Assembly: GCA_022539475.1 (NCBI GenBank)
Contig: VCMS01000154.1
Location: 1-64,000, forward strand
Source of the DNA: Gracilaria domingensis
Taxonomy: Eukaryota > Rhodophyta > Florideophyceae > Gracilariales > Gracilariaceae
DNA length: 64,000 bases
Direction of reading: 5' to 3'
Made by a program: the position numbers and the translations under genes. Below, piece by piece: positions 8,329 through 63,900 of this stretch (position 1 is the stretch's first letter; every line of letters starts with the position of its first letter). The notes under the pieces were generated by a model, which was given only the letters and a program-made list of their open reading frames with translations, did not search any database and was not told the DNA's origin.

Positions 8329-9143
8329 TGTTGTGCAAAACCCAGCGATGGCGAAAGACACGCAAAGGCGGTTCAGACCCTCTCTCAAGAGGCGAGCACA
8401 GCAGTAGAGCGCTCCCACAGGTACGACACGGCAATGCCGGGTGTAAGACCGTGGTCGACCCTTCCCAAGTAATGGAGGGAGCGAAGCGGCGAAGAAGAAG
8501 CGTCCAGCGGTAGAGAACACACGACACAAGTCGGCAGTAGCGTCACGTGCGTAGCACGCGGTACCCACGAGTGTGGCGATGACACGCGAGAGCGGTAATA
8601 GCCCACGCGAGTGTGTCGAGCCACGAACGATATGCACCGGTACACCAAGTAGTGCTACCTGTATAACAGGGACAGAAATAAAGAAAACACACACAAAGTA
8701 AACACGCGAAAGCGGTAGTGGTGTTAATGATGCCGCGAGGCGGATGATGAACCCTGCACAAGGTGTCGACTCTCCGGGAGGAGGATATCGGTCACCAAAG
8801 GTGAAACATCAGAGCCGAACACTCGGTTAGTCCGTTTACTTCCCGACAATGGGTGCAGCTCAACCTACTAAGTAGTGTAGAGTGCCAACCCACTGTCAAG
8901 CGGTGTAGCGAAAATATCTAGAATAAACATCTAAAATACCCCCACTAATGGGTGCAAACTTCCCACACGTGTGTGACCCACCGGCTAAGCCGTGCGCCTC
9001 ATAACACTAATTCTAATATTAAGTATACCCAAGAATGGGCTGATCTCACCAGTTACTCATACTGTGTGCCACCACCTCCCGGCATCGCCGTGCATGTTAT
9101 GAATCGCATCAGCGAAGGAGTCCCGCAATCGCGTTGCACTACA
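8329..9143 (-). repeat. Element 1 3' LTR
   Basis: 815 bp. On the plus strand it runs TGTTGTGC to CACTACA (sense TGTAGTGC to GCACAACA), with canonical TG/CA ends. It matches 19770-20585 almost base for base; differences seen at about 8352, 8451, 8630, 8800 and 8846. Confidence 0.93.
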
Positions 9144-9160
9144 TTTCCCCCTCCTTAGGG
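9144..9160 (-). promoter_or_regulatory. Polypurine tract of element 1
   Basis: Reverse complement reads CCCTAAGGAGGGGGAAA directly against the 3' LTR. This is the usual plus-strand DNA primer site of LTR retrotransposons. Near-identical copies lie inside pol at 13091-13108 and 16243-16262. Confidence 0.85.
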
Positions 9161-9205
9161 TGCGAGACGACCACGCGAGCGGTTTCGTTTTCCTCCTCTG
9201 GAGTG

Positions 9206-9213
9206 TATTTAAG
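9206..9213 (+). promoter_or_regulatory. TATA box for the antisense ORF, element 1
   Basis: TATTTAAG on the plus strand, 62 bp inside the LTR edge and upstream of the antisense ORF. Element 2 has TATATAAG 61 bp inside its LTR edge in the same orientation relative to its antisense ORF. A start site about 30 bp downstream would place the Met codon at 9382 first in the transcript with good context. Confidence 0.55.
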
Positions 9214-9381
9214 CACGTCGGCATGACGGTCTCCAATCCGGCCTCCCCGGTCTCTTCTAACGGCGACTCCGGTCCACCCCTCTCCACGCGTACTGCGGTA
9301 GTGTCTCCTCCGATACCTCGGCGCGCTCTCCCTTCTCTCTCGCTTCCAGCGCTTTCGTCTCTTCCTCGCGCGCTTCCCGCG

Positions 9382-11238
9382 ATGCCGAACCCGAATCAGG
9401 GTAGCAACCAACCGCCTGGCGGGTCTCAGAACCAATACGTTGGTGGTTTCGCTGGGCCTTCACACCCTTCCTCCTCTGGAGTGCCTCTCTCACAGCCGTC
9501 TTCCGCTGGCGTTCCGTTTCGCAACCGGTCAATCCGGGATTTCACACGGCTCCTCTTCCCCAGACGGGTGGTCAACTTCCGCCCCGGCGTCTGTACCGCA
9601 GTGGAACTGGATCGCTCCTGCTGTTCCGGTCCAACCGGTAGTCAACCCGTATGCGGGCGCGTGGGCGTCGTATGACGAACTCGACAACGTCGACCCTCGC
9701 AGCAATCCCACACCGTTCTTACGGGCTCCGTGGTTTCATCCGCAAGGCGTGACCAATCGTTCCCTCGTCGAGGCGTATGCCGATGGCAGTGGTCACCTCC
9801 CAGGAGGCGTGCACGTCTGGATGACGGTGACGTTCGACTGGCATTACCGGATTACCGTGCCTACCAACGCGCTCGTCCACCATCGTGGTCAGTCGCACAA
9901 CTCCGCCCGAGCGGCCATGGTTCGCGTAGCGCACATGCGCATGTTTCGCACGTACTCAGAGCGCCCGATTCCGGCGAACTTCCGTTTCGACGTGGCCTTC
10001 TTCCGAACACTCGGCGAAATCCAATATGGAGAGAATCTTGCCCGGCTCGCCGGTGTGGTGGAGCGTTACCAGAACGTCCCCGTTCACCAGGATCTCCTGT
10101 GCTGGACCCGTCCGCTTCTGCGTGCAGAATTTCGATATCTCCCACGCGTACTGCGGTCCAACTACCTTCAAACAATGATCCGTCCCGAACGACGTGCCCG
10201 CTTCCGATGGGGTTACCTTATCCCGTATCAAAACACGGAGTCAAACCGGATTCGTCCGCGCCACATGCGTGGGAGATATGTTCCTCTCCCCTTTGTGTGG
10301 GCGTCCGTGAAGGTCTGCCGTGGCTGTTACGTGGAACTCCCCCCTGTCTCACGTATGTGGGTAGTAGGCTCGTGACAAACCCGTTTACGGGATGGTGGAG
10401 CGTTGTCCTCACGCAGTGGGCGGCGCGAACAGCGGTGTATCTCCTCAACGAGGTATATGACCAGTATCGACTGTGGTTCATTCCCCCGCGCTTGCGGCAA
10501 CTCATCCGAGCCTTGGATCTCACTATCCCGCTTGGCGGTAATGGAAACTTCTCGGAAGTCATGTGCCTCTTGCGAGTGATCGATGGCGTTGACTGGAGTC
10601 AAGTTCCTCTTTCGCAGAGCGCGCGGGACGAAGGCGATTCCGCTATTGATCGGTCTCCGGGTCGCAGGTCCCCACTGTCGGGTGATTACATCTATTACGA
10701 CCCCTGGACACGGGTGCCGATTACCAACGCCGAGGCGGAGCTCCTTCGGAACGCCGAGCGAGTCATCCCTCCGGGGCACCCTACGGGCTTCATCATAACT
10801 GATGAGTTCTTCCACCCTGTTGGGGACCAGAACATCATGGTTGACGACGCTCCCGATGACGGTGACGAGTACGGCGACGACGACTTCGCGGCAGCTCCTG
10901 TGGAGGGGACAGTACCTGCTTCAGCAGTGCCAGGTCCCTAAGCGGGTGCTAACGCAACCTTGTCGGGCGCGGTGAATGTTCCTTCTGCGCCTCAAGCGGT
11001 TCCTGTACCCACACCAGTGGTTGTCTCGACTCCAGAGAGTGCTGCCCATTCTGCGATGGCGGCGTCAGCTGCGCCGAACGAAGCCGCGAACGCGGGTATC
11101 TCTGATGAAGTACGGGCTGCCGTGATTGCTCAGTTCCTCAGCGAGGCTGGTGCTTCCGACGCAGCGTCGGGGGACGTTTCGCAAATGCGCGATGCTCTCC
11201 TTGCGCAGCTCGCGAACAATCAGCCTAGTTCCGAGTAA
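9382..11238 (+). pseudogene. Antisense accessory ORF of element 1, frameshifted
   Basis: Long ORF opposite in direction to gag-pol, of unknown function. It is homologous to the minus-strand ORF at 62067-63881 in element 2. The N-terminal part (from ATG 9382; an upstream ATG at 9223 is in frame) is Pro/Ser/Gly-rich. The frame then changes between about 9480 and 9560, and the conserved core is read in the next frame: PWFHP, LPGG, ARAAM, AEFRYL, RWGYLIPYQN and PLPFVWA. A one-base deletion in a C6 run (10339-10344) returns it to the first frame for YVGSR, PPRLR, DRSPGR, YYDPW and MVDD. A TAA at 10939-10941 interrupts, and the Ala-rich tail stays open to 11238. Conserved Trp, Tyr and Arg residues suggest a folded domain. 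No known family is recognised. Similar antisense ORFs are known from plant Ty3/gypsy elements, but I see no specific match. Confidence 0.75.
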
Positions 11239-11714
11239 CTCGTGCAACTTCTCCTCCATGGAGCCCCCCCCCTGGGTAATACCCATTAGCTAGGCGGTTG
11301 CGGGCTCGAGTAGCGAGCCGCAACATAGTTACGATAACCAGTAAAACTGTGACTTCTCTTAACTTCAAGGCTTCTTTCCTTTCTCAAGGTACATACTTCA
11401 TAACTTCTCCCTTTCGGGGTAATCTTCCTCTTACGAGTTTCCATTTCCTCTTCATAGAGTTCTTCTTTCTCTTTCGAGCTTCATTTCCTCTTTATAGAGT
11501 CTTCTTCCTCTTTCGAGTGTATCTATCGTCTCCTCTTCCTGAGGGCATAACTGTTCGAACTTCAACTTTTCTCTCCCTAGAGTGTCTCCTCACCACGCGA
11601 GTAGCGGTACAATACTCCTCTGGAGGTTGTCGCAGTGTTCCTCGATTGAGTGTTGTCGTTCGTAGGACCGTTCGTGCGCGGTACGCGATAAGCCTCCGTC
11701 TCCCACGACGTGTG
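11239..11714. other. Spacer between convergent ORFs of element 1, with short tandem repeats
   Basis: Lies between the ends of the antisense ORF and the chromodomain ORF, where both transcripts would terminate. It is strongly pyrimidine-rich on the plus strand and holds at least two units of about 38 bp (TTCCTCTT..ATAGAGT..TTCTTC..CTCTTTCGAG) at about 11442-11520, with looser related copies before and after. Confidence 0.5.
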
Positions 11715-13132
11715 TTATCCGACCATCGCTTGATGTAGGTTAGCCGGCAACGCCGTGTTAGTTCGACGATGGTACTGCACGATCTTCGATCGGGGTAAGT
11801 GCTCCACGGGTTCGTCGGAATCCCGCGACGGCGGATAGCCATACCAGCGTACCTGGTACTGAACATACCCCTTCGGGTTCCAACTGTGTCCCACGATGTG
11901 GTCTACGACGAACTCTTTCGAGTATACGCCCCGCTCGAGCTCTTCCTGCGAAGGGTCGTCAGCGCGCCGCGGCGGTGCCGTAACTTCGTCACCAGCGGTG
12001 CTGTGAGTTTCTCCTGACGCCTTCGGCGGTAGACTTGCCCTCTGCTGAGTGTTCGTTTCCCGTTTCCGGGCTTCTTTAAGCAGCTTCGCCGCTTCGGCGG
12101 GTCCGCGAACGGCTAGTTCACGCGGTAGTTCCCGTCCTGACGGTGAAGGCAGACGCGGAGGCGGATTGTTCACCACGGCACGTGCCGGTTCACGTGACGA
12201 CACGCGACGTTTCGCGGTGGTGGCACTGCCACGAGCTGTGATTGGCCCATTGTGTGGCGCGCGCTGCGCACCCCAAGATTTGTGGTGCGCAAGCGCTCCT
12301 GCAGATGCAGTGTGCGTTTTCCCTAAATCAGGGCTGTAATCCGTATCTCCAGCGAGCGGTGCGCCGTCATGACTTATCGAAACGTCATGACGTGCGACTT
12401 GCGACTTCCCCACGGCTGGGTGCAACGGTGCACTACCATTACCCGAACCGGGGTGTGTGATCTTCGCTTCAGCGAGCGTCTCCTCTTCTTCCTGCTCTGC
12501 AGTGTCTAAGGTACCGGGATCTGCCGTGACTTCCTTAGTGCGCGCCCGTGAAGGCGGTATGTGGCGGTCGTCAGCGACGGTTTGCGGCGACTGCGCGTCC
12601 GGAATACTCCGTGATACACTATCCAGCTTCGCTGTAGCCTCACTCTGCCGAGAAGTCGAGTGTTCTTGATCAACTTCCGGCCTTGCCGTGGTAACGTCGC
12701 GAACGAGAGCATGCTCCGCGTCCTGCGCCGACGAGGCGATGGGCGCGTGTTCTGGCGACAATTCCCCCAGCGGGTGAGCGATACCAGTATCCTGGGACAA
12801 CCTCGAGTCCGTTCGTTGCGTGCGGTATCCTTCAGAAAGGTCGCGATCCTTCGTAGAAGGTTGTGCATCCTCCGCGGAGTTCTGCGCGACAGCGGCCGAC
12901 TGGAGCGCGTCCTTCGCGGCCTCAACACGCGACAGCGGGTGATCCTTCCCACTGACAGTGGTGTTCGTAGCAACTACGTCTTCGACGGTGTCCTGAGGCG
13001 ACCCCGCCTCCTCTTCATTATCTTCCCGTGAATCACGGTGCTGCGACGGTAGCGACACCGGTGACTCACTCTCCGCGACGACGCGTGAATCCTCCTCCCC
13101 TCCTTAGGTGGAGCGTTACGGGGAGCAGTCAT
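11715..13132 (-). CDS. Linker plus chromodomain ORF of element 1
   Basis: The open frame runs from 13103 (after a TAA) to the stop at 11715. It sits in the -1 frame relative to pol and overlaps the pol tail by about 130 bp. A long low-complexity Ser/Thr/Glu/Ala-rich linker is followed by a chromodomain near the end (FVVDHIV, YQVRWYGY, EHLPRSKI at about 11780-11935). In chromoviruses this domain follows integrase and is thought to direct insertion to marked chromatin. The aligned ORF of element 2 opens with ATG (60350) and shares PPKEG. Here the matching ATG (13132) lies in the pol frame, so a 1- or 2-base change in the purine run at 13091-13103 separates it. It is either a third ORF, a fused pol tail broken by an indel, or a second frameshift. 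Confidence 0.7.
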
Positions 13133-16100
13133 CACGTCTGTTGACGGTGTAATAGACGCTGTGAAACGCGATTTCACCAGCGCTGTATGTTCCGATATCT
13201 CGGCTTGGGACGATATAATCGGTACCTCTGCGAGACCCCTTGCAGGGTTGCGAAGCCCCACAGTAGGTGTAGTGTTCTGCGACGAGAATTCTCGGTTCTG
13301 TGTCTGTCCAGCTTCCTGCTGTGAATCCGAAACTATTTCCGTGTGCACCGTTGGGCCCTGCACAACGCGATCGCGGGAGAAACGCTCATGAGCGTCGCCA
13401 ACTTCCAGTACGACTGTGTCCGTATTCACGCTAATAACGCGGTATGGACCATCAGCGATGGGTGAAAGCTTGTGGCGCCGCTCCTTTTCAGGGTTGTAGT
13501 ACTCCTTCCTGACAAAGGCGAGGTTTCCCACTTTCAGTGGCGGTAGTGGTCTCCGTACCCGGGCATCAAAGTTCCGCTTGTAAGCGTGTTGTGCTTTCGC
13601 CATTGACGACCTGGCGACAGGTACCATTGCGGATAACCACTGCTTCCATTGCAAGTAGTGATCCCGTATTGACGGTGACGTATCCAGCTTTGCTGATGGT
13701 TCAACCGCAACTGGCGGTGGTGTCCGTGAGAGCACGAGCTCAAAGGGCGATAAACCAGTTACTCTGTGAACTTGCGTATTATACGCATACGTCACGGTAT
13801 CCGTGTAGAGATCCCAAGTTTTCGGGTGTTCGACTGTATAAGCCCGCAACGCGGAGAGCATTGTCCGGTTAAACCGTTCGACTTGCCCATTGCATTGGGG
13901 ATGATACGTCGTCGTGAAGAGATTCTTCACGTTGAGTATCCGACAGACATCCTGGAAGAAACGTGCAGTAAACTGCGGACCATTATCTGAGAGGAGATTG
14001 ACCGGGGGACCGTAGACCATAACCCAATGGCGAACGAATGCCTCCGCAACACTGCGTGCTGTAATCGACTTCAACGGAACTGTCCGGACTAGCTTACTGA
14101 ATCTATCCGTAATAACGAGTAAGAACCGATTTCCTCGGGAAGTACGCAAGAACTCACCGAGTATATCGATGGCAATAAACTCCAACGGCGCCCTTGCGGG
14201 GAAAAGTGTTAGTTTCTTCGCATGGCGACGCTGTTTAACTCGCTCGCGAGCACAATGTGTACATGCCTTCACGGTGGTGTAGCAGTCCAACGCTAACGCG
14301 GGCCAGTAGAAATCCCGACGCAGAGTCGTGTATAACCGCTTAGCACCCGGATGGGAAGCCATCCGCGAGTGATGCGAGAGATGCAATACCCTTGTTTGTA
14401 AGGAGTGAGGAACCACAATCTGTGGGGTAGAACGAACCACTCTGACGAGGTAACCTTGTGTGTTGACCCCGAACGGGATGTTAGCACCACCATTAATTTG
14501 GGAGCGTATCCTCGTACAGAACGGGTCAGATTGCTGTTCCCGCACCAGCTCTTCTGGAGTAATGGGGACGAATGTACCGGATTCCGGGTCTTCACCGTCT
14601 GCGACGAGCAAATCATCACAGATGTCGTCCGACACGATGTCGTAGTCTTCATCACCCTCCTCCATGAGGAAACAGGAGATATCTTCATCCTCGTCATCGA
14701 CGGGTAAAGCTTCACCTTCAGTTCCTAGACGTGAAAGAGCATCCGCTTGCGCGTTTAAACAACGCTTCTTATAGGTGACCTCGTAGTCAAACTCGGCAAG
14801 CCGAAGACGCCAACGCATTAAGCGTCCGGAAGGCTCCGTGACTGACATTAACCAACGCAAGGCGGAATGATCCGTATTGACGGTAAAGTGCACACCCATA
14901 AGATATGGTCGTAGAGTCTGCAAAGCCCATACCATGGCGAGACACTCCTTCTCGGATACCGAGTAATTGCGCTCGTGCACGTTGAGTGTACGAGACCAAT
15001 AGCCAATTGGTTTGCCTTCCCCTTCGGGTGTAGTCTGAAAGAGAGCGCAGCCAATTTGGTAATCGCTCGAATCCGTATCCACGGTGTACGGCAACCCGTT
15101 CTTTGGTAACGCTAACACGGGTGCCGTGGTAACAGCCTCTTTAAGAGAGTTGAAGGCCTCCACTTGCGTGGGGGTAAGTGGTCCCAATTTGGGCGGTTGT
15201 CCCTTCTTCAGAAGTTCGTTGAGTGGTCCCGCGATCTTCGCGAAGCGAGAAATGAACCGTCTATAAACGTTGCATAGCCCCAGAAAGGAGCGTAGCTCTG
15301 TCTGTGTAGTGGGGTGCTTCGCCTCTTTGAGGGACTTCACGCGAGCTTCCTCGATCAGTAACCGTCCTGGACGTATGACTTGGCCCAGATACTTCACTGA
15401 GTCAGTGAAAAACTCACACTTCCTCAATTTGAGAGTAATTCCAGCATCCCGCAAAGCGGTCATTATCTCCCGAACATGTTCGAGGTGATCGTCCAAACTG
15501 TTGGAAAACACGATGATGTCATCGAGGTATACCAAGCAACTCCGCCATTTGAAGCGAGCTAACAAAATGTCCAGAGCACGCTGAAACGTAGCGGGGGCGT
15601 TCGTTAACCCGAACGGCATACGCTTAAAGCGGTATAGTCCTGAATGACAGGTAAACGCGGTTTTGTCACGGTCTTCCGGTCTAACTGGTACTTGCCAGTA
15701 ACCCCAGTTTGCATCCAAAGTGGAGAAAACAGTAGCATCGCCAAGCGAGTCGATATACTCGTCCATACGAGGTATGGGGTACACGTCTTTGACGGTGACA
15801 TCGTTCAAGCGACGATAGTCGATACAAAAGCGCCAGGACCCATCGGGTTTCGGAGCCAGTACAACTGGAGATGCCCACGGCGACTGAGCCGGTTCTATCA
15901 CGCCAGCGCGGAGCATTTTGTTGATCTGAAACTCTTCCTCTTCCCGTGCTTTCGGGCCTGCCCTGTAAGGGTGCTGAGCAATCGGCTTGGTCTCCGGCAG
16001 GAGGTCAATCCGGTGTTCCGTAGTTGAAACCTCTCCGAGGGAACCATCCCACATTGGTGTAAACTCTCGCAACATGTTGCGCAACTTCTCACGGTGTGAA

Positions 16101-17269
16101 ACCGGTACATGACCGAGATTCAATTCTTCTAACTCCTTGATAGGGTCAATCTTGTCATAACTCGTAGGAACGGTCCTAGCTTCCGAGTCATTCGTGTGTT
16201 CAACCGTTTGGGACGGGTCCGACGCAGACGAGCGCGACGATTCTCCCTCCCCCTCCTTAGGGTGAAGCAAACCAGTGCGTTCTTCAGCAAGCCCGAGCAT
16301 CTCGGCGGCAGTCACCTTTGTAGGGATAAGCGCCGTAGGGTGCGGTAAGACAGTACCAATTACTTGGTTCTTCACCAGATACTGGGGCTTCTTGCCAAAG
16401 TTGGCCAACATAACCCGAAAGGGGTGTTCGCTGTTGATTTGAACAACTCCGTTCGCCAACGCGACCTGATACTTCTCGTATAACGAGTTCAATGGTTGAA
16501 CAACCCGCAAACCACGCGGTGCGGCAGTAACATCAACCCAAACCTGGGATTCTGGCGGAATAGAAATTGCACGCGCTACGCGGAGCTTCGGCGACTCCTT
16601 CGGAGGTGAGGAATCCTGTAGAGGAGCGGGTAGTGGTACCAGCTTAGCTGACGCTCGGCGTAATGAGCGACGAACAATCGGTACAACCGAACCATCTTCC
16701 ATTTCCACTTCACGCGCACGCGGTCGTATGGCTTCGACATATCTGTCGCAGAAGTCACACCCTAGAATGACAGGGGCAGCGAGCGTCTTGCAGACGATGA
16801 ATTCTACCTGCTCGATGCAGTTACCAATCCTGACAATCAGTGAAACCATTCCAGCCGTTTGTAACGGGTTATTGTTAGCATCTGCCACGTCCATGACGGG
16901 TCCAGAGCGGATTCGACAACGGACTTCCGGCGGTAGTAACGACTCAACGATGAAGTTGGGGCCAGCACCTGTATCCAAGACAGAGAGATGACGCACCATA
17001 TACTGGGTGGATAGGCCAAGGTCAGCAAATATCTTGTAGTTTCGCTTGGCCAGCACCATGACTCGATCCGGGATCCGGTTGTTCCTGAACCGTATCCACG
17101 GGCGACGTAACACACCGATGGTGGTAGAGTCCACGTCTAAGACGGTCTGTTTCCTCGAAAGGATTTTGACCTGGGAGCGAGGCGGTGACGCCTCGGGCGC
17201 CGTAGACCTCGACTCGGGCGCCTCTCCATTGGAGACTCCCGTACTCAGTTTAACTGAGTTCCATCCGTT
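12974..17269 (-). CDS. pol: Element 1 pol polyprotein
   Basis: Open from 17269 to the stop at 12974, with no ATG at the front, as expected if made by -1 frameshift from gag. Domains in order: aspartic protease with LSVLDTGAGPN (near 16976); reverse transcriptase with IDYRRLN, FSTLDANWGYWQ, PFGLTNAPATF and YLDDI (near 15530); RNase H with DTDSSD and the NYSVSEKE block (near 15080-14950); integrase with an HHCC zinc site, catalytic AIDILG (near 14167), SDNGPQF and YHPQCNGQVERFN; and a GPY motif (near 13450). All catalytic motifs read normally, so the enzyme set looks intact. The last 40 or so residues after APPKEG are Arg-rich and out of step with the relative in element 2, which marks the frame change into the chromodomain ORF. 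Confidence 0.92.
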   Translation of the reverse strand, partial: NGWNSVKLSTGVSNGEAPESRSTAPEASPPRSQVKILSRKQTVLDVDSTTIGVLRRPWIRFRNNRIPDRVMVLAKRNYKIFADLGLSTQYMVRHLSVLDTGAGPNFIVESLLPPEVRCRIRSGPVMDVADANNNPLQTAGMVSLIVRIGNCIEQVEFIVCKTLAAPVILGCDFCDRYVEAIRPRAREVEMEDGSVVPIVRRSLRRASAKLVPLPAPLQDSSPPKESPKLRVARAISIPPESQVWVDVTAAPRGLRVVQPLNSLYEKYQVALANGVVQINSEHPFRVMLANFGKKPQYLVKNQVIGTVLPHPTALIPTKVTAAEMLGLAEERTGLLHPKEGEGESSRSSASDPSQTVEHTNDSEARTVPTSYDKIDPIKELEELNLGHVPVSHREKLRNMLREFTPMWDGSLGEVSTTEHRIDLLPETKPIAQHPYRAGPKAREEEEFQINKMLRAGVIEPAQSPWASPVVLAPKPDGSWRFCIDYRRLNDVTVKDVYPIPRMDEYIDSLGDATVFSTLDANWGYWQVPVRPEDRDKTAFTCHSGLYRFKRMPFGLTNAPATFQRALDILLARFKWRSCLVYLDDIIVFSNSLDDHLEHVREIMTALRDAGITLKLRKCEFFTDSVKYLGQVIRPGRLLIEEARVKSLKEAKHPTTQTELRSFLGLCNVYRRFISRFAKIAGPLNELLKKGQPPKLGPLTPTQVEAFNSLKEAVTTAPVLALPKNGLPYTVDTDSSDYQIGCALFQTTPEGEGKPIGYWSRTLNVHERNYSVSEKECLAMVWALQTLRPYLMGVHFTVNTDHSALRWLMSVTEPSGRLMRWRLRLAEFDYEVTYKKRCLNAQADALSRLGTEGEALPVDDEDEDISCFLMEEGDEDYDIVSDDICDDLLVADGEDPESGTFVPITPEELVREQQSDPFCTRIRSQINGGANIPFGVNTQGYLVRVVRSTPQIVVPHSLQTRVLHLSHHSRMASHPGAKRLYTTLRRDFYWPALALDCYTTVKACTHCARERVKQRRHAKKLTLFPARAPLEFIAIDILGEFLRTSRGNRFLLVITDRFSKLVRTVPLKSITARSVAEAFVRHWVMVYGPPVNLLSDNGPQFTARFFQDVCRILNVKNLFTTTYHPQCNGQVERFNRTMLSALRAYTVEHPKTWDLYTDTVTYAYNTQVHRVTGLSPFELVLSRTPPPVAVEPSAKLDTSPSIRDHYLQWKQWLSAMVPVARSSMAKAQHAYKRNFDARVRRPLPPLKVGNLAFVRKEYYNPEKERRHKLSPIADGPYRVISVNTDTVVLEVGDAHERFSRDRVVQGPTVHTEIVSDSQQEAGQTQNREFSSQNTTPTVGLRNPARGLAEVPIISSQAEISEHTALVKSRFTASITPSTDVMTAPRNAPPKEGRRIHASSRRVSHRCRYRRSTVIHGKIMKRRRGRLRTPSKT
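13091..13108 (-). promoter_or_regulatory. Internal polypurine-tract-like copy (end of pol)
   Basis: Reverse complement CCTAAGGAGGGGAGGAGG, nearly the 3' polypurine tract. It coincides with the frame change between pol and the chromodomain ORF. Element 2 has CCTAAAGAGGGAGAGG at the matching place (60368). Confidence 0.5.
16243..16262 (-). promoter_or_regulatory. Internal polypurine-tract-like copy (protease-RT linker)
   Basis: Reverse complement CCCTAAGGAGGGGGAGGGAG, which contains the core of the 3' tract, CTAAGGAGGGGGA. It encodes a PKEGEGE run between protease and reverse transcriptase. Element 2 has CCAAGGAGGGGGAGG at the aligned codons (57142). Confidence 0.5.
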
Positions 17270-19329
17270 CTAACGGGAACGGCGTCCTGTGCAGCAGGCC
17301 TCTTCACAGATTCCTGTGGAACAGCGACAGAATTACTGGCAGCAGCGGTTGCCGCCACGGCTTGAGCCGGTGAAACATTGACCTGGGTCGAACCAGAGTG
17401 CAGTAACGCAGCCAATTCTGCAGCAGACACCCTACGGGGGTACTCAGCCTTCGCACGCAGATATGCGGTTACCGGCACTGACGCCTGTTCGGCGGGGGTC
17501 AGCGCTTCAAAATTCGCCACAACCGTGGGCATTTCCCTCATCGAGAGGTTGCAGTTCGGAGCTGCATGACCGTGGTTGTAACACGTGAAACAGATCAGGG
17601 GTGATCTTCCGGAACTCCGTGGGTCTTGGAACTTCACCGTTCGCGGGTCTACCCAACCAGGTCGCTGGTAACGACTCCCTGAATAGGGTACTTGAGGACC
17701 GCGAACGCGTGGACGGTCTGCGTAAAGCAGCGCATCTTCCGTCTTCGACGAGGCTTCTGAAGTAGAAGGCAACTCCGTAGTCGGAATAGAATCCAGGTCC
17801 ACCTGTGCGAGATGTAAGTTATCCACATCGTGGCCAGAAAAGTCCTGCGGTAGCAGTGAAGCCGATGACGACCCTCCTTCGAGGTGCAACGCTTTGGTTG
17901 AAACCCGGTATCCGGTGCGTGCGCGCAAGGCGTCTCCCTCCGCCTTCGCGTACTGCACTAACTCTAGATAGGTAGTCTTCTTCCGGTCTTCCCGTCGCTG
18001 GGCAACCAGAGTGCGAATAGCCGGATTCAATCCGTTGATAAACAGAGTACAGCGCTCGTTTGAGGAGTAAACATTGCCACAACGGTGGAATGCCTTATTC
18101 AGGCGTACCGAGTACTCGGTTTCCGACTCCTTCGGGCGTTGTTTCGTCTCCCGCAACGCGGTGATTGCTTCCTCGATAGAGGTATTTGTCGCATACGAGC
18201 GCAACAAATACTGCACTGCTTCGGGCCAGCAGGTGACCCCTCCTTCAGAGGCGCGAGATGAACCTCTTACAGAGTTATACTGATCTTCAGCGAGTCCCCG
18301 TAGAAAATACGGTAAGGCAACATAAGCTTGCCCCTCACTCATGCCGAGGATGTCAGCTTCCGCTACAAAGCGTGAAAGAAAGTCAGGCACCAGAATGGGA
18401 TCCTCCCCAGTGAACAACTGGTTGCGAAAGGTTAAGGACATGCGTTTGATGCAGTCCTTCACCTTACCCGTGCCACGGGGCGTCCGGTTCAGACTTGAAT
18501 CTTCCAAACGGTAATACCGGTAAGATAACAACCTTTTGAACAAGGGATTCGTCGGCTCCAGTTCCCTCAAACCTGAGTGCTTTCGCCCCCGTTTCCGGGT
18601 ACCAACAACACCATAGGTGGACGTAGAACTCCGCGAACGCGTAGAACGAGCGCGACGTTCACCGTCACTTGACGAGCTCGATGATAAGGAACCCGCCGAG
18701 CGGTTTGAAATACCAGAAGACTGTGACGAATCCGAGTCATACTCGTCGACATTCCTCTTCTTAGAGCGACTCTTCCCGGACTTCCGGTCACGTGTACCAC
18801 GAGACACTCCCGCAGAGGCGGCAGCAGGGCCGTCATCCTCACGGATGGTGGCCTCTAACGTCTCAAGACGGCCAAGGATCCGAATGAACTTCGTGTTAAC
18901 CTCCTCGGTGAAACTGGGATATCCTTGAAGAACCTCCAAGAGGGCATTAACATCCTTCCGTAAAATACGTAGATCATCTGATACACCTCCGTTGAGGGCT
19001 GCGTCAACCTTCAAACGAAGTGTGTCGACCTCGGAAACGAGTGCTTCATGAGAACTCCTCATGACAGCAGTCTGAGCCTCAAGCACACGAACTTGAGTCT
19101 CCAACTCGTTTACGAGCGCATCCTTCGCCGCGACAGCGGGTATAAGACCCTCCAAAGGAGCAGATGAGGGCCCAGCCACTGGGGCGTCAGACGACTTGTC
19201 AGGCTGTTTCCGGTTTCCGGGTTTCTTTCCATCACCCTGTAGGGGTTCAGGAACAGACCGCAGACGTGGGGGCAAGCCAGAGCCAACGGAGCGAGACTTC
19301 GTAGGGCTCGAGCGCTTGCCCGACACCAT
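17245..19329 (-). CDS. gag: Element 1 gag (capsid/nucleocapsid)
   Basis: 694 codons from ATG 19329 (context MVSGKRSS). The open frame extends upstream to about 19374 without another ATG. A basic/Pro-rich head is followed by coiled-coil-like heptads (LETQVRVLEAQ region), a Ser/Arg-rich stretch with many SSSS runs, the retrotransposon gag helix region (LPYFLRGLAEDQY, WPEAVQYLLRSY, KAFHRCGNVY) and one CCHC zinc knuckle, CFTCYNHGHAAPNC, near 17580. The tail is Ala/Val-rich. It ends CAG TTA AAC TGA, overlapping the open pol frame by about 25 bp. Gag forms the particle that packages the RNA. It is closely comparable with the broken gag of element 2. Confidence 0.9.
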   Translation of the reverse strand: MVSGKRSSPTKSRSVGSGLPPRLRSVPEPLQGDGKKPGNRKQPDKSSDAPVAGPSSAPLEGLIPAVAAKDALVNELETQVRVLEAQTAVMRSSHEALVSEVDTLRLKVDAALNGGVSDDLRILRKDVNALLEVLQGYPSFTEEVNTKFIRILGRLETLEATIREDDGPAAASAGVSRGTRDRKSGKSRSKKRNVDEYDSDSSQSSGISNRSAGSLSSSSSSDGERRARSTRSRSSTSTYGVVGTRKRGRKHSGLRELEPTNPLFKRLLSYRYYRLEDSSLNRTPRGTGKVKDCIKRMSLTFRNQLFTGEDPILVPDFLSRFVAEADILGMSEGQAYVALPYFLRGLAEDQYNSVRGSSRASEGGVTCWPEAVQYLLRSYATNTSIEEAITALRETKQRPKESETEYSVRLNKAFHRCGNVYSSNERCTLFINGLNPAIRTLVAQRREDRKKTTYLELVQYAKAEGDALRARTGYRVSTKALHLEGGSSSASLLPQDFSGHDVDNLHLAQVDLDSIPTTELPSTSEASSKTEDALLYADRPRVRGPQVPYSGSRYQRPGWVDPRTVKFQDPRSSGRSPLICFTCYNHGHAAPNCNLSMREMPTVVANFEALTPAEQASVPVTAYLRAKAEYPRRVSAAELAALLHSGSTQVNVSPAQAVAATAAASNSVAVPQESVKRPAAQDAVPVRTDGTQLN
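17248..17254 (-). promoter_or_regulatory. Candidate -1 frameshift site at end of gag
   Basis: Sense GTTAAAC, phased as G TTA AAC directly before the gag stop TGA (17245-17247). Pol is in the -1 frame and open here. GUUAAAC is a known slippery heptamer in arteriviruses. Element 2 has G AAA AAC TAA at the same place. Confidence 0.45.
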
Positions 19330-19751
19330 CGTCCACGACGAGATACAACCAGAAAACTGGGACCAGGAAAGCAAAACAACAAATTAACCTCGAATGAGTG
19401 TAGCGTCCTCACACGAGTGACGATAACCGACAAATCGGACGAACCGACCGTACCAACGGGAACAGCCGTATACGGAATTAGGGCTGATTCGACCAGATTG
19501 CTGGGAACGGTAGACAACCCAAACGGGGTGACAACAACCGTACCGACGGGAATCACACACTACGGAAATAGGTAGTGCCACCGGTAGTAAACCGTGTCCA
19601 AACAACAACCCAAAATGAGGAAAGCAGTACCAACACGACGTCTGTCGGCAAAGCCTTCCAGTAGAAACTGTGTAGTGTATCTCCACGACCAGATACGAAC
19701 CGGCAAACCGGAAATTGATCAGAAAACCAACTTGCTGGATCAAGGCGACTT

Positions 19752-19769: not shown

Positions 19770-20585
19770 TGTTGTGCAAAACCCAGCGATGGGGAAAGAC
19801 ACGCAAAGGCGGTTCAGACCCTCTCTCAAGAGGCGAGCACAGCAGTAGAGCGCTCCCACAGGTACGACACGGCAATGCCGGGTGTAAGACCGGGGTCGAC
19901 CCTTCCCAAGTAATGGAGGGAGCGAAGCGGCGAAGAAGAAGCGTCCAGCGGTAGAGAACACACGACACAAGTCGGCAGTAGCGTCACGTGCGTAGCACGC
20001 GGTACCCACGAGTGTGGCGATGACACGCGAGAGCGGTAATAGCCCACGCGAGTGTGTCGAGCCACGAACGGTATGCACCGGTACACCAAGTAGTGCTACC
20101 TGTATAACAGGGACAGAAATAAAGAAAACACACACAAAGTAAACACGCGAAAGCGGTAGTGGTGTTAATGATGCCGCGAGGCGGATGATGAACCCTGCAC
20201 AAGGTGTCGACTCTCCGGGAGGAGGATATCGGTCACCAAGGGTGAAACATCAGAGCCGAACACTCGGTTAGTCCGTTTACTTCCCCGACAATGGGTGCAG
20301 CTCAACCTACTAAGTAGTGTAGAGTGCCAACCCACTGTCAAGCGGTGTAGCGAAAATATCTAGAATAAACATCTAAAATACCCCCACTAATGGGTGCAAA
20401 CTTCCCACACGTGTGTGACCCACCGGCTAAGCCGTGCGCCTCATAACACTAATTCTAATATTAAGTATACCCAAGAATGGGCTGATCTCACCAGTTACTC
20501 ATACTGTGTGCCACCACCTCCCGGCATCGCCGTGCATGTTATGAATCGCATCAGCGAAGGAGTCCCGCAATCGCGTTGCACTACA
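19770..20585 (-). repeat. Element 1 5' LTR
   Basis: 816 bp, one C longer than the partner LTR (near 20284). Flanked on the right by GTCTC (20586-20590), the target duplication. Confidence 0.93.
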
Positions 20586-22834: not shown

Positions 22835-22944
22835 CCTCCTCAACTTTACTTCGTTTTCAATCTTCTTTCTTGTTCTTACCGTAATCATTGTTCATCTGTC
22901 TACCGCTTTGTGTTGTTTTGTTTCTGTTCTACCTGTCGCCGAGA

Positions 22945-52888: not shown

Positions 52889-53923
52889 TGTAGAGGAAAA
52901 CGTGCTCGCCCGATACACGGGGATTGTTTTCAAAAACCCCTGGTAAGGATGATTCCGGGTACTCGGGAGGTATGAGTATTGGCCCACAGATGGGATACTT
53001 TCTGGCAGTATTGAGGGATGGCACCCTAAGGGGTCGGCCATGACGTGGCGCAGATGAGTATTGGTCGCGTGTACGCGTGTGTAGGAGTGGGTGTGTTCAC
53101 ACATGTTTTGTTATGACTGTCGGATATTTTACTGGCCGCTGCCGCAGGTTGTCACGTGCACCACGTGTATGGACCTGCTTAGGTGTGCACTAGATTATTT
53201 AATTTAGTTTAACTAATTCATCGGTTACGATATAAGAGGTGACCTCCCGGTCACCTCTTCCTTCAGTAAAGGGTAACCGAGTTTGGCTGTGAACCATGTT
53301 CGCCTGCGCGAAGTGTACAACTCCCTCAGGAGGGTCACCGCGTACGGTACGGATTGGATTCATCCCTCGGGATCACTCAGGCAATACTGACCATTGGGGC
53401 TTTGCCATCGGGCTTATTTATTCCGTGTCTTCGGACTTTCTGTTTCGTTTACTGTGCAGTTGAACTGTTTTCGCAACAATTGGTAGCATTTCCGTCTCTG
53501 TATAAAGTGTGCCGCGTGGGCTTAATACACATCGTCGTCTCTCTGCGCCCGGTCTGTTGCCGCTTTCGGCACGTCCCGCCGCGGGATTCCTCTCCTTTCC
53601 CCCTTTTGCCTAGGGCTTACACCGCTCCACGGTACCTTCCTCCTCGACCATTCCGTTACTTTTCGCCGGATTCCTGGATAAGGCCCGTTCACCCCTCAAC
53701 CTCCGGAGGTATATCCCGTACCACGGGCGGTCTTACACCCGCACTATCCGTGTTCGGAGGGCTCACCACTGAGTTCACCTCGTCTAGAGGGCAAGGACTC
53801 GAACGCCTTGAGAGACGATCCCATCGCTGGGGTTTTGCTCTACAAGTGGTCTCCCGACTTAAAACGGGTTGGATTCTTTCTTTCGTTCTCGTTCTCGTCG
53901 AGGAGTCTCACGATTAGTGATCA
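52889..53923 (+). repeat. Element 2 5' LTR
   Basis: Begins TGTAGAGGAAAACGTGCTCGCCC, matching the start of the right LTR at 63962, and ends GATCA before ATTGGTCT. Length about 1035 bp. The end is set by comparison of the primer-binding site with element 1. Confidence 0.75.
53229..53257 (+). promoter_or_regulatory. TATA box with hairpin in element 2 LTR
   Basis: GATATAAG (53229-53236) runs straight into GAGGTGACC, TCCC loop, GGTCACCTC, a perfect 9-bp stem. Confidence 0.65.
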
Positions 53924-54060: not shown

Positions 54061-56157
54061 ATGGCACCACCTGCGCCGAACTCTCGAAACGGTGTGGCCA
54101 GAGAAACTGGTGTGCCTCCACCTAGGCCTCCGCGTTCTCGCGCCTCCGTACCTGCAAGGTCGCCTGACAATGAACAGGTCCCTGAACCCCGGAGAGCCTC
54201 GTGAGTCACGTCGGGTCCGATGGCCGCTTCTACGGCAGGAGCTCCGCCCGTTACGGGTACTCCGGTTACGGAGAGACCAGACGATGTGGTTGAAACCCCT
54301 GGATACTCGTACCTCGAGGCTCAACTGCGTGTCAGTCAGCTCGCGCAAAACTCGTTGTTCGAGGATCTGCACTACCTCAGACGGAAGCCTGACCAAGCTG
54401 AAATCGGAGATCCGACCAATGACATTCGTGTCTTAAGCCAAGACGTGAATTCCATTTTGGAAAGTCTGGGTGCAGCAGCCGCTTTTGTTCAAGCTTACCA
54501 TTCCTCTATTCAAGAGCATCGAACTGAATTCGATCGCCTAACCACTCGGTTGTCTACTCTCGAAGAGGTCATCCGGATGGATAACGCATCTGATGCGAAG
54601 AATGCTGAGGAAGAAGCCTCTAAGCACTCGGCACGCCAATCTCCGTATCACGGAAATCGACGATCCAAAAAGGAACTCCGTTATGACTCGGATTCGTCTA
54701 CTTCCAATTCTAGCGTTCGCTCTGCGAAATCTACTTCATCCAGTTCTTCGGACAGTGAGAAAGACCGAGAACGGTATGGGAGTAGATCCCGCGGGACGAA
54801 GTCGAAGGCGACATATGCCACTCAAGAACTGATTCGCTCTCGCGAGAAAGGTAGACGTCATCTTGGACTCAAGGAGTTGAAGCCAACGAATCTTCTCTAT
54901 ATGAAGCTGTTGTCGTATCGTTATTACCGATTGGACGATTCATCGTCAAGTCGCACCTCGCGAAGCACCGGTAAGGTGAAGGACCACATCAGAAGACTGA
55001 ATATCGTCTTTACGAAGCAATTCGATGGCAAAGATCCAATTCTGGTACTGGACTTCCTCGCCCGCTTTGTGCAGGAAGCCGACATTCTCGGTATGAACGA
55101 GGCGCAAGCGTTTCTCGCTTTACCCTATTTTCTGTCAGGGATGGCTGAAGATCAGTTTAACTCGGTCCGAGGGTCGTCCCGTGCATCTGAGGGAGGTGTC
55201 AGTTGTTGGCCGGAAGCGGTCCAATACCTCCTGAGGTCCTATGCAACACGAAGCGCGATTCACAACGCGACGCTCGCTCTGCCAGATACTAAACAGAAGA
55301 CTGAAGAGACCGAAACGGTTTACTCAACTCGGTTGAACAAAGCGTTTCATCGCTGCTGAAATGTGTACTTCGCTCAAGAGAGACGCACGATGTTCGTGGA
55401 TGGGTTGGACCCTTCTATCAAGGCTTTGGTGGCGCGATATCTCGAAGAGAAACGTAGGATTACGTATCTGGAATTGGTCCAGTACGCCCAGGCTGAAGGC
55501 AAAGTCCTCCGTGCTGGGCACCCGCCGAAACCCCGTCGCTTAAGGGCGTTGCTCTTCAACGAGTCATCTCCATCTCTTTCCTGGGAACGTGGAAACTCCG
55601 TGAACCCGGATCTGGATAATGTCCACTTCGTTGGAAGTGCTCCCGACTCGTACGTGCCTTCTGACATTCCGTCGTCGTCGACTCCGATCTCGGAAGGTGA
55701 CCCCGCACTCTATATGGGAGGAACACGGGTACAGGCCGCTCCACTCGCTTACGCGACCAACGGCAGCCGTTTGTCATGCCCAGGATGGGTGAATGCGCAA
55801 CCGCAACGACGGCCAGATGGTAATCGATCTTTCGATAAGTCGGTGACGACCATCTGTCATATTTGTTACCGACCCGGTCATATTGCACCTGTGTGCATGT
55901 TGCCCGCTCGGGAGTTACCGAAAGTTATCGGGTGGTATGAGTCCTTGTCACCAGCTGACCGTGCTCGCGTTCCGAGTAAGAATTATGAAGAGCAAAGGGC
56001 CAAATTTGGCAATCCTGTTACAGGACAGAACGTTCGAACTGAGCAACCTCGGAACCAGGCTGAACAGGTAACTGTGACCAACCCCGAACCCGGGAATTCT
56101 GTTTCCCACTTTGAGCAGAGTTTGCCGTCGCCGGCCAACCCCGCCCAGAAAAACTAA
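54061..56157 (+). pseudogene. gag: Element 2 gag, two in-frame stops
   Basis: Frame from ATG 54061 (MAPPAPNSRNG) to TAA 56155-56157, broken by TGA at 54202-54204 and TGA at 55357-55359. The second stop stands where element 1 has Gly (CGNVY), one base change from GGA. Same order as the gag of element 1: Pro/Arg-rich head, coiled-coil region, Ser-rich stretch, helix region (WPEAVQYLLRSYA, NKAFHRC) and CCHC knuckle CHICYRPGHIAPVC near 55855. It ends CAG AAA AAC TAA. Confidence 0.85.
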
Positions 56158-56213
56158 ACTTGGGAGTTCCCCCTGCGGGAGGGGCGTCTCCTGAGCCGAA
56201 GTCGGAGACGCCC
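56148..56213 (+). promoter_or_regulatory. Candidate -1 frameshift signal
   Basis: GAAAAAC (56148-56154) directly before the gag stop, followed by a perfect 10-bp stem GGGCGTCTCC (56182-56191) and GGAGACGCCC (56204-56213). Pol lies in the -1 frame. The spacer to this stem (27 nt) is longer than usual. Confidence 0.4.
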
Positions 56214-59200
56214 GAAGCGCCGCCGCTTCGCTCCCAGGTCACTTTCCTTGAGAGAAAGATGCTTACGAGGAAGATGGCTCAATCTGACGTGGACTCAGAG
56301 CTTTTAACGGTTCTCCGTCGTCCGTGGGTAGGGTCCCGAAATTTCCCTAACCCGGATAGAGTCCTTGTGATGGCCAAGAGGAATTATAAGGTTTACGCCG
56401 ACCTCGGCTTATCACAACAGTTTATGGTTCGTCAACTGTCCGTGTTGGACATGGGGGCTGCGCCAAATCTCATTCACTCCTCGTTAGTGCCCCCGGCACT
56501 TCGGGAATTCGTTCGCTATGGTCCAGGCTTGGATATCGCTGACGCGAACAATAACCCGTTGCGCACGGTTGGTTACTTAACTCTCACAGTGAAACTTGGC
56601 ACCTACGTGGTGAAACTTGAATTTGTAGTCTGCGATTCGCTCTCTGCACCGGTTATGCTCGGTTGTGATTTTTGCGACCGCTTTGTCAAAGCGATACGCC
56701 CAAGGGCGAAAACAGTGGAAATGGAAGACGGTACAACCATTCCGATCGTTCGAAAGCCGTTGAGGCGCGCAATCCGGAAGCGCGTTCCATTATCTGTAGC
56801 TCAGGTGGTCCCAAACCTGGATCCGAAATCAACAAAGCTTCGCATAGCTAAATCCGTTTCAATCCCTCCGGAAGCCCAGGTGTGGGTGGAGAGCATCTCC
56901 AAAAAACATGGAATTCGACTAGTTCAACCGTCGTCATCGTTATACGATCAGCGACAGCTCGCTTTAGCTAATGGTGTTGTTTCTATCGAGCCCGATCAAC
57001 CTTTCAAGGTACTGGTTGCCAACTTTGGCAAAACCACTCAGTGGCTAGTCAAACACCAGGTACTGGGTTCGGTTCTGCCGCATCTGAAGGCGCTCGTACA
57101 GACAAGAATCCCAACGTCCGAGGTTCTCGGTGTGCCCGAAGCCAAGGAGGGGGAGGTGCGTCCTGGGAACTCCGTTTTGTGGGATTCCTCCAGAAATGGA
57201 AACTCCGCCGTACCGGAAGCCGTCGCTACTGAAGAGGTGAATCTAGTTAGTTCGGACCACGAACGACCGTTCATTCCGGTTAAATCAGCGCTACCCCCTG
57301 GCACAGAACAGACGAATCCTGTTGAGGAATTAGAGAAGTTGAATCTGGACCATGTCCCAGCGTCTCATCGCGAGAAGTTACGAGACATGCTCAGAGAATT
57401 TACTCCCATGTGGGACGGTTCCATTGGAAAAATTGGAATTACGGGGCACCGTATTGATCTGCTCCCAGATACTCGCCCAATCGCACGACACCCGTATCGG
57501 GCAGGCCCGAAAGCGCGGGAAGAAGAAAAGTCTCAAGTCGAGAAGATGCTACGTGCGAACGTAATTGAGCCAGATCAGTCGTCATGGGCATCGCCCGTTG
57601 TAGTTGTTCCAAAGTCGGATGGATCGTGGCGTTTTTGCATCGATTACAGGCGACTTAACGCCGTTACCGTCAAAGACGTGTATCCGATTCCACGGATGGA
57701 TGAGTACATCGACTCGCTGGGAAGCGCCAGAGTATTTACCGCCCTTGATGCCAATTGGGGTTACTGGCAGGTTTCAATTCGAAAGGAAGATCGCGACAAG
57801 ACCGCGCTTGTATGTCACCAAGGACTGTACCGTTTCAAACGGATGCCCTTCGGGCTAACAAATGCTCCCGCTACGTTTCAGCGCGCAATTGACATTCTGT
57901 TTGCCAGATTCAAGTGGAAGACTTGTCTTGTGTACTTGGACGACATTGTATTATTTTCCAACAGTATGGATGAACATATGTCCCATGTGAGGGAAGTGAT
58001 GCAGGTTCTGCGTGACGCAGGTGTTACTTTGAAGCTCAAGAAATGCGAATTCTTTAACGACTCGGTGAAATACCTGGGCCACATTATCCGCCCAGGGAAA
58101 CTCTCGGTCGACGAGGTAAGGGTGAAGTCGCTGAAGGAAGCGAAACATCCCACAACTCAAACGGAATTCCGATCATTTCTCGGTTTGTGTAATGTCTACC
58201 GTCGATTCGTCCCGAATTTCCCTGATACTGCAGCTCCTCTCAATTCTCTCCTCAGCAAAGGACAGTCAGTTAAACTGGAAGCATTCGGCGATGCGGAAGC
58301 ATACGCCTTTTCGTCGTTAATTGACGCTGTTACGTCTGCGCCGATTTTGGCGTTGCCCACTCCAGGGCTTCCATATGAAGTTGATACTGATTCCAGTGAC
58401 CACCAAGTAGGTTCTGCATTGTTTCAAGTCTCGAGGGAAGGCGAGCGACGTCCAGTTGGATACTGGTCTCGTTCATTGAACGTGCATGAGCGTAATTACT
58501 CAGTCTCTGAGAAAGAGTGTCTCGCCGTCGTTTGGGCGCTGTCTACCTTAAGACCCTATCTTATGGGAACCCATTTTCAGGTACATACCGATCATTTGGC
58601 TCTCCGCTGGCTTATGGAGATCTCCGAGCCATCGGGTCGCCTTATGCGTTGGCGTCTCCGTTTATCGGAATTCGATTTTAATGTGCGGTACAAACGGGGC
58701 ACCCTGAATATGCAGGCTGATGCACTTTCACGCTTAGGAACGTCTGGTGAAGCAGAACCTGTCGACGACGACGACATACCATGCTTCTTGGTGGAAGACT
58801 GGGAGGAAGACCCCGAAATTACGGATGACGTCTGTGACGATATTCTCGCCGCAGAAACTGCCGAGCCACCGCCTGGCTCATTTAAACCCATTACCGCTGA
58901 AGAGGTAATACGAGAACAACACGGGGATCCTTTCTGTACCCAGTTAAGGGCCCGACTCAACGGGGGATTCAAGATACCCTTTCTAATCAACGATCAGAGA
59001 TTCCTTGTTAGGATTTTTGAGCCACGCCCTCAAATTGTGGTTCCACACTCCCTACAATAAAGGTTTCTCCATATATCCCACTATGCGAAGATTGGGGGAC
59101 ACCCTGGTGGCAGGAGGTTGTATCTAACTCTCCGAAGAGACTTTTATTGGCCAGCTATGGCATTCGACTGCTACGCAGTACGCCGTTCATGCACGGAATG

Positions 59201-60233
59201 CGCCAAGAACAACGTCAAACTCCGACGAAATTCTATGTCGATGACGCTGTTCCCAGCCCGGGCTCCCTTGGAGTTCGCCGCTATCGACATTCTGGGCGAA
59301 TTAATTCGAACCGCACGCGGTCACAGGTATCTCCTGGTTATCACGGACAGGTTTTCGAAGTTAATGCGAACGGTTCCGTTGAAGCGGATCACTGCAGCAG
59401 CAGTTGCACAAGCATTTGTGACGCATTGGGTCTTCACTTACGAGCTACCCGTTAATCTGCTTTCAGACAATGGCTCGCAGTTTGCGTCAAAGTTCTTTAT
59501 GGACATATGCCGTATCTTGGATGTCAAATATTTGTTTACAACAACCTATCATCCCCAGTGTAGTGGGAAGGTAGAACGATTTAATCGTACAATGCTTAAC
59601 GCATTACGATCCTATGTTTCGGATCACCCAAAGGATTGGGACTTGCACACCGATGCTATTACGTACGCGTATAACACCCAAGTGCATCGGGTAACGAAGC
59701 TTTCGCCGTTTCAACTCGTTCTTTCGAGGATACTGCCACCGGTAGCAATCGAATCACAACCGACGCTAGCGTCTTTCCCGTCACCACGGATGTACAAGGA
59801 CAGCTGGAAAAATTGGTGAACCAAGATGGTACCGGTAGCCCGGAAGGCCATGGACAAGGCACAGCTTACGTACAAGCGTAATTTCGATCGCCGAATTCGC
59901 GGTACACCAGTGGTGGTAGAGCCAAACAGCTTTGTGTTCCTTCGGAAGGAGTATTACAACCCTGACAAGGAAAAGAGACATAAGCTCTCCCCCATCGCTG
60001 ATGGACCGTATCGCGTCATTTCCGTCAATCCGGATACCGTCGTACTCGACATTGACGGACGTCATGAACGAATCTCGCGCGACCGCGTTGTGCCCGCCCC
60101 AACGCCACCCACCGCAACCGGGCCCACCCAACCAATACCCAATCAGAGGATCCTCAACAGGAGGCAGAACCGTCAAGAGCCGCTACACTACCGTCGCGCC
60201 CAGCGATTCTTCCGCACCCGGATTGAGGATTAA
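56160..60233 (+). pseudogene. pol: Element 2 pol, two in-frame stops
   Basis: Open from the gag overlap in the -1 frame to 60233, interrupted by TAA 59058-59060 and TGA 59817-59819. Protease block LSVLDMGAAPN: the DTG motif of element 1 reads DMG here. Reverse transcriptase has IDYRRLN, FTALDANWGYWQ and YLDDIV; RNase H has DTDSSDHQ and NYSVSEKE. The first stop falls just before the integrase zinc region (HYAKIGGHP). Integrase catalytic blocks AIDILG, SDNGSQF and YHPQCSGKVERFN follow. The second stop precedes the C-terminal region with KLSPIADGPYRV (GPY motif). Confidence 0.88.
57142..57156 (+). promoter_or_regulatory. Internal polypurine-tract-like copy, element 2
   Basis: CCAAGGAGGGGGAGG in the protease-RT linker, at codons aligned with the copy in element 1. 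Confidence 0.5.
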
Positions 60234-63892: not shown

Positions 63893-63900
63893 CTTATATA
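63893..63900 (-). promoter_or_regulatory. TATA box for the antisense ORF, element 2
   Basis: Minus strand GTATATAAGC, 61 bp from the LTR edge, matching the position of the TATA box in element 1. Confidence 0.6.

What the first reader, a model, noticed from the sequence alone, without database searches (positions are those of the whole stretch)
9144..11238. Conserved antisense accessory ORF in two diverged chromoviruses
Both Ty3/gypsy elements carry, between chromodomain and 3' LTR, a roughly 600-codon ORF running against gag-pol. The two proteins align over most of their length (shared PWFHP, LPGG, ARAAM, AEFRYL, YVGSR, PPRLR, DRSPGR, YYDPW, MVDD), though the elements differ clearly elsewhere. 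Retention in both suggests a selected function such as control of copy number, a packaged factor or a silencing suppressor; these are guesses. Antisense extra ORFs are known in some plant Ty3/gypsy elements; I recognise no homology to those.
Basis: partly seen in the sequence, partly recalled or inferred. Interest (0 to 1): 0.9.

Follow-up and report, generated by a model that had tools for sequence, protein, structure and literature searches.

The report
Antisense accessory gene in algal retrotransposons
Jumping genes of the retrotransposon kind in this red-alga-like genome carry, on the opposite strand to their other genes, a fast-evolving but selectively maintained gene for a protein of unknown type, probably with its own promoter, which is most likely a helper that the element uses to control its own activity.

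Summary
Both chromoviruses in the window carry, between chromodomain and 3' LTR, an ORF against gag-pol. Both window copies are interrupted, but uninterrupted copies exist: four capped genome searches found them (23 of 73, 3 of 74, 32 of 45, 49 of 75 rows). At least six element families have the ORF. Of 104 reverse-transcriptase hits, 55 have it downstream on the opposite strand, none on the same strand. dN/dS between subfamilies is 0.15-0.39; private changes look neutral. RT and antisense trees of six families agree, but the antisense protein diverges faster (41-52% versus 74-86% identity). A TATA-like box lies 57-60 nt inside the polypurine tract in 15 of 16 pieces scored, so the gene probably has its own promoter; the start codon is open. 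The protein has a low-complexity N-tail, a core of 386-391 aa and an acidic C-tail, and matches no Pfam family, solved structure or known fold in the libraries searched. The one named homologue is from the red alga Gracilariopsis chorda. The architecture equals plant antisense ORFs (Grande, Retand); the protein shows no relation to TRP28. Function is inferred: an element-encoded regulator or anti-silencing factor.

The parts
9223..11238 (+). F1 antisense accessory ORF region (interrupted in this copy); first ATG 9223, second conserved Met 9382
9206..9213 (+). TATA-like box of the F1 antisense gene, 59 nt from the polypurine tract
9146..9157 (-). polypurine tract of F1 (reads as a CCCCCT tract on +)
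8329..9143 (-). 3' LTR of F1
11239..11714 (.). noncoding stretch between the convergent antisense ORF and chromodomain ORF of F1
11715..13058 (-). C-terminal pol part with chromodomain (PF00385)
12974..17134 (-). F1 pol: RT, RNase H, integrase
17245..19374 (-). F1 gag-position ORF (no Pfam match over its cut-off)
19770..20585 (-). 5' LTR of F1
62067..63881 (-). F2 antisense accessory ORF region (one internal stop in this copy)
63893..63900 (-). TATA-like box of the F2 antisense gene, 58 nt from the polypurine tract
61346..61672 (+). F2 ORF with the chromodomain motif (by eye, not scanned with Pfam)
54220..59819 (+). F2 gag and pol ORFs (RT and RNase H by Pfam in 56160-59060; 59118-59819 not scanned)
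52889..53843 (+). 5' LTR of F2 (3' LTR begins at 63962 and runs past the window end)

Best explanation
A genuine, selectively maintained accessory protein gene of a chromovirus lineage in a red-alga-like genome. It lies antisense between chromodomain and polypurine tract, is copied with the element, and is probably transcribed from its own core promoter (a TATA-like box 57-60 nt inside the polypurine tract) towards pol. Its product is a soluble protein: low-complexity N-tail, folded core of about 390 aa that resembles no solved fold found here, acidic C-tail. Inferred steps: the protein acts in trans for the element, most likely in the nucleus, to keep its own family expressed or to escape silencing. 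Because its mRNA would run towards pol, overlap with the 3' part of the genomic RNA may also set a ceiling on expression. Shown: position, strand linkage, uninterrupted copies, selection, co-inheritance, TATA-like box. Inferred: transcription, localisation, regulatory role.
For: Uninterrupted ORFs in four searches. dN/dS 0.154 (F2-F2b, dS 1.4), 0.235 (F1-C46), 0.18 and 0.22 (F2-F2c), 0.265-0.39 (F1 subfamilies). In 24 F1 copies N:S from the second Met on is 118:61 for private and 79:78 for shared changes; neutral expectation 2.34; Fisher p 0.004; shared against neutral p 3e-7, private p 0.25; central core alone 73:40 against 28:32, p 0.025. Linkage: 55 of 104 RT hits have an antisense place 2.5-7.5 kb downstream on the opposite strand, 0 on the same strand; 4 of the 49 unpaired hits were read and all 4 carry the sequence, partly interrupted. 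Same tree topology for RT and antisense core in six families (no support values), Mantel r 0.74, p 0.003. TATA-like box at a fixed offset. Usable core model (mean pLDDT 75, pTM 0.70; over residues 1-360, 29 of 36 ten-residue blocks at 80 or more) without PDB or BFVD match. No long hydrophobic stretch. Precedent: maize Grande gene23 is transcribed from a promoter just upstream of it (PMC7264820, passages) and its protein is nuclear (PMC11963269, Background).
Against: No transcript, localisation or binding data. No DNA-binding or chromatin domain recognised. VANC-like target repeats absent in 4 of 6 families. The start codon is unresolved: of 16 pieces the first ATG precedes the TATA-like box in 3 and lies only 7-22 nt after it in 12, which is short for a TATA-driven mRNA; yet an (I/V)PR motif between the two candidate ATGs is kept in 10 of 11 segments aligned, which argues that this stretch is translated in those families (F3 and F5 were not in that alignment; their leaders lack it). 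Young pairs show higher dN/dS (F2 0.51 and 0.77, F2b 0.47), as expected for decay after insertion. Four near-identical pairs among the 24 F1 copies blur private and shared changes.
Confidence: 0.45

Rival explanations
1. Structural or replication accessory factor: the protein works in the cytoplasm or inside virus-like particles (packaging, nuclear import, assembly), not on transcription.
For: Globular core of nearly constant length (386-391 aa in six families) without recognised DNA-binding domain; co-inherited with pol.
Against: Antisense expression with its own TATA-like box would decouple its dose from gag-pol, unusual for a structural protein; divergence is faster than RT.
Confidence: 0.25
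2. Anti-silencing factor proper (works like Arabidopsis VANC): the protein removes silent marks from its own family's copies in a sequence-specific way.
For: Fast divergence between families while pol is conserved, as expected for family-specific recognition; many near-identical copies.
Against: No family-specific motif arrays in the antisense-pol spacer of 4 of 6 families; only pyrimidine tracts in F1 and F6. LTRs and 5' leaders of most families were not tested.
Confidence: 0.2
3. The antisense transcript, not the protein, is the functional product (dsRNA or interference), the ORF being a passenger.
For: Convergent layout with pol; antisense RNA roles are discussed for plant elements (PMC7264820, passages).
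Against: Protein-level selection and nearly constant core length across six families at 41-52% identity.
Confidence: 0.05
4. Captured host gene carried by a few copies.
For: None found.
Against: Present in six families with a congruent tree; no Pfam or PDB relative.
Confidence: 0.03

Closest known systems
Maize Grande gene23 (plant antisense ORF between pol and 3' LTR)
   Same: Position, antisense orientation, promoter in the element just upstream of the gene (PMC7264820, passages).
   Different: Here chromoviruses of a red-alga-like genome; the promoter is inferred from sequence only; nuclear localisation untested; the Grande protein itself was not compared.
Retand elements with antisense TRP28 (Transposase_28, PF04195) proteins
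   Same: Long pol-3'LTR region with antisense ORFs in nearly all recent elements (PMC11963269, passages and two sections).
   Different: Retand are non-chromoviruses of flowering plants; PF04195 is not found in the proteins or the genome.
HTLV-1 HBZ (antisense retroviral gene)
   Same: Antisense gene in a retroelement, nuclear product in HBZ (PMC11963269, Background).
   Different: HTLV has its antisense promoter inside the 3' LTR (PMC7264820, passage); here the TATA-like box lies outside the LTR; no bZIP domain found (the bZIP nature of HBZ is recalled).
VANC anti-silencing proteins of VANDAL transposons
   Same: Possible role only: an accessory protein of an element, fast diverging.
   Different: DNA transposon (recalled); VANC targets form tandem repeats (PMC10398659, abstract), not seen in 4 of 6 families here.
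[quoted passage not shown]
   Same: Accessory gene on the strand opposite to the element's enzyme in an algal transposon (PMC12477816, passages).
   Different: DNA transposon; that protein has DNA-binding and methyltransferase domains, none of which is recognised here.

Membership tests
Plant-type antisense additional ORF (aORF-3R) | ORF between pol and 3' LTR, antisense to gag-pol | tested here: met
   Window F1, F2; chromodomain motif on the opposite strand also read beside one ORF each of F2-F6; 55 of 104 RT hits, 0 same-strand
Plant-type antisense additional ORF (aORF-3R) | Present in many copies of a family, conserved as protein | tested here: met
   the lists are capped, so counts are lower bounds and the share of all copies is not known
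Plant-type antisense additional ORF (aORF-3R) | Own promoter next to the ORF (Grande) | tested here: inconclusive
   TATA-like box at a fixed offset in 15 of 16 pieces; no transcript data
Plant-type antisense additional ORF (aORF-3R) | Nuclear protein (Grande) | not testable with these tools
   No localisation data; a simple basic-cluster pattern hits one of six family proteins, F2
Retand / TRP28 | Transposase_28 domain PF04195 | tested here: not met
Retand / TRP28 | Non-chromovirus gypsy lineage | tested here: not met
   Chromodomain PF00385 in F1; chromodomain motif in F2-F6
Env-like additional ORF | Sense orientation, membrane-spanning segments | tested here: not met
   Antisense; maximal 19-residue Kyte-Doolittle mean 1.15-1.52 in six families
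HBZ-type antisense gene | Promoter inside the 3' LTR | tested here: inconclusive
   Best TATA-like match lies 57-60 nt inside the polypurine tract, outside the LTR; the LTR was not scanned, so an LTR promoter is not excluded
VANC-like anti-silencing protein | Repeated target motifs in noncoding DNA | tested here: inconclusive
   Antisense-pol spacer: no excess in F2-F5, pyrimidine tracts in F1 and F6; one F1 LTR stretch, run as a control, showed no excess; other LTRs and 5' leaders were not tested

The most novel reading that the evidence does not exclude
A previously undescribed protein family with a new fold, encoded antisense by chromoviruses of red algae from an internal promoter, that acts as a family-specific regulator of element silencing: a third, independent origin of the strategy seen in Grande/Retand and in VANDAL elements.
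Probability: 0.25. Interest if true: 0.8.

Novelty: new variant of a known kind. Interest (0 to 1): 0.6.

Why it matters
Antisense accessory genes are known from flowering-plant gypsy elements, and the papers seen here call their function unknown. Here an apparently unrelated protein occupies the same slot in another lineage, with many uninterrupted copies in one genome. That argues the slot itself, a separately controlled antisense gene next to the 3' LTR, is useful to LTR elements, and gives an independent system in which the function can be tested.

Tried and rejected
Rejected: chance or shadow ORF (the longest opposite-strand ORF listed across the F1 antisense region has 162 codons; selection shown); captured host gene (no relatives outside elements found); Env-like protein; TRP28 relative; relatives in viral contigs or prokaryote genomes (32 and 48 pattern matches, none confirmed by tblastn). 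Led nowhere: first AlphaFold run with 7 sequences (pLDDT 46); fold searches (no match); spacer motif arrays; Pfam hits at E 0.04-0.25, judged chance. I first thought the second Met is the start codon; one search weakened that and I leave it open. The tblastn returned nothing because gapped rows had got into the query file (found); the same four loci were read directly and carry the sequence. Two of 18 upstream pieces (C453, C108) were dropped before the TATA count because no polypurine tract was found by pattern. Five of the 16 remaining pieces (F3, F5, C195b, C22, C511) were left out. In the F1 count from the second Met on, 19 sites with more than two states and 9 stop changes were left out. 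Three weak hits (P0016-P0018, E 4e-5 to 5e-3) were left out of the second fold and are not claimed as relatives.

Full report
What is there. The window lies in a 77.9-Mb, 680-contig genome. The only homologue of the antisense protein with an organism name is hypothetical protein BWQ96_10156 of the red alga Gracilariopsis chorda, so the host is likely a gracilarialean red alga; Gracilaria domingensis is given as 78 Mb in PMC10388701 (passages), which fits but is not proof. F1 is a chromovirus on the minus strand, 8329-20585, LTRs 99.4% identical, target duplication GTCTC. F2 is a related chromovirus on the plus strand from 52889, LTRs 90.7% identical. F1 has RT, RNase H, integrase and chromodomain by Pfam, F2 RT and RNase H; the chromodomain of F2 was seen as a motif. 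Between chromodomain and 3' LTR lies the antisense ORF.

Reality of the ORF. Both window copies are interrupted, but uninterrupted natural ORFs exist: full length without stop in 23 of 73 F1 rows, 3 of 74 F2 rows and 49 of 75 F4 rows (counted); a 610-codon open frame in 32 of the 45 non-F1 rows (counted), of which three places were read and are F3. Two more families (F5, F6) appeared with another homologue as query and one copy of each was read. A merge of the lists gives 271 places; the searches score only the best candidates, so this is a lower bound, though fragments and duplicated contigs may inflate it. Of 104 reverse-transcriptase hits, 52 or, with the F4 list, 55 have an antisense place 2.5-7.5 kb downstream on the opposite strand and none on the same strand; the upstream control gave 1 opposite and 1 same. 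Of the 49 unpaired hits 4 were examined and all 4 carry the sequence, partly interrupted, so missing pairs may largely reflect capped lists; 45 were not examined.

Selection. Pairwise NG86 dN/dS on natural open stretches: F2-F2b 0.154, F1-C46 0.235, F2-F2c 0.18 and 0.22, F1 subfamilies 0.265, 0.30 and 0.39; between main families 0.24-0.33 in five of six pairs (dS 1.8-2.9, near saturation) and not estimable in one. Young pairs: F1 0.30, F2 0.51 and 0.77, F2b 0.47, F2c 0.39, F3 0.06 and 0.26. In 24 F1 copies, from the second Met on, private changes are N118:S61 and shared changes N79:S78, against a neutral ratio of 2.34; the classes differ (Fisher p 0.004) and only the shared class departs from neutrality (p 3e-7 against 0.25); in the central core 73:40 against 28:32, p 0.025. 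Copies are related and four pairs are near-identical, so these p values are optimistic. The picture is the usual one: selection while the lineage transposes, drift after insertion.

Co-inheritance and rate. RT (400 aa) and antisense core of six families give the same FastTree topology, (F4,F6,(F2,(F3,(F1,F5)))), without support values; Mantel r 0.74, permutation p 0.003. For F1, F2, F4 and F6 the RT and the antisense core came from different copies of the family. RT identities are 74-86%, antisense-core identities 41-52%. F3 is 67-71% identical to the Gracilariopsis chorda protein, which suggests that the family predates that split unless it moved between species. The gene has travelled with pol and evolves faster.

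Promoter. A scan for TATAWAWR over 260 nt from the polypurine tract puts the best match at offset 57-60 in 15 of 16 pieces, with 6 to 8 of 8 matching bases; F4 has a weak tie (56, 58, 60 and 98). The sequence between tract and box has diverged between families while the spacing has hardly changed. The pieces are not independent (three F1, several F2-type). Two further pieces had no recognisable tract and were dropped. The box lies outside the LTR. Which ATG starts the protein is open: a second Met is shared by the families read, and stops or frameshifts lie between the two ATGs in 4 of 16 pieces, but an (I/V)PR motif between them is kept in 10 of 11 aligned segments, with dN/dS from 0.25 to 1.2 for diverged pairs where it could be estimated.

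Comparison with what is known. A plant review describes antisense ORFs between pol and 3' LTR (Grande, RIRE2, Retand, PvRetro13), with transcription of Grande gene23 from a promoter upstream of it (PMC7264820, passages); antisense ORFs with a TRP28 domain are in 97% of the Retand clusters of PMC11963269 (passages and two sections). An Ectocarpus paper mentions an opposite-strand accessory gene in a DNA transposon, with similar proteins in red algal transposons (PMC12477816, passages); its domains are not recognised here. Library searches for antisense ORFs in red-algal or chromoviral elements listed no description of this one (listings, and most subscription journals are not held). The genome shows no PF04195 (that call shows no positive control over the cut-off). 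So this is the same architecture with an apparently unrelated protein in another lineage: a new variant of a known kind.

Mechanism. I favour an element-encoded regulator working in trans, most likely nuclear, because it seems to have its own antisense expression unit and diverges fast while pol does not; this is inference. The spacer lacks motif arrays in four of six families, which counts against a strict VANC analogy. A particle or assembly factor is the main rival.

Noticed in passing
12974-19374, 54220-59060 and antisense ORFs of F1-F6: Short-loop perfect inverted repeats (5-nt arms, loops of 2-6 nt) are 2-3 times more frequent than in codon-shuffled sequence in gag and pol of F1 and F2 and antisense ORFs of F1-F3 (z 3.5-7.9), less so in antisense ORFs of F4-F6 (z 1.3-3.7), not in the Copia ORF nearby (z -0.2); two other window stretches also show z 2.8 and 5.3. 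Possibly a template-switch mutation signature.
   Followed up: partly
22551-27290: A Copia element with 269-nt terminal repeats identical to each other and one 1379-codon ORF with gag and RVT_2 domains: a very recent insertion.
   Followed up: no
31745-46370: Array of diverged direct repeats (119-300 nt blocks, 64-89% alike) spaced about 1.8-3.7 kb, with a closer pair at 44260/45233; long ORFs on both strands; not identified.
   Followed up: no
9223-11238: The single-base gaps of the window copy lie in short homopolymer runs although its LTRs are 99.4% identical; one gap is shared with another copy. Assembly errors or young decay cannot be told apart here.
   Followed up: partly
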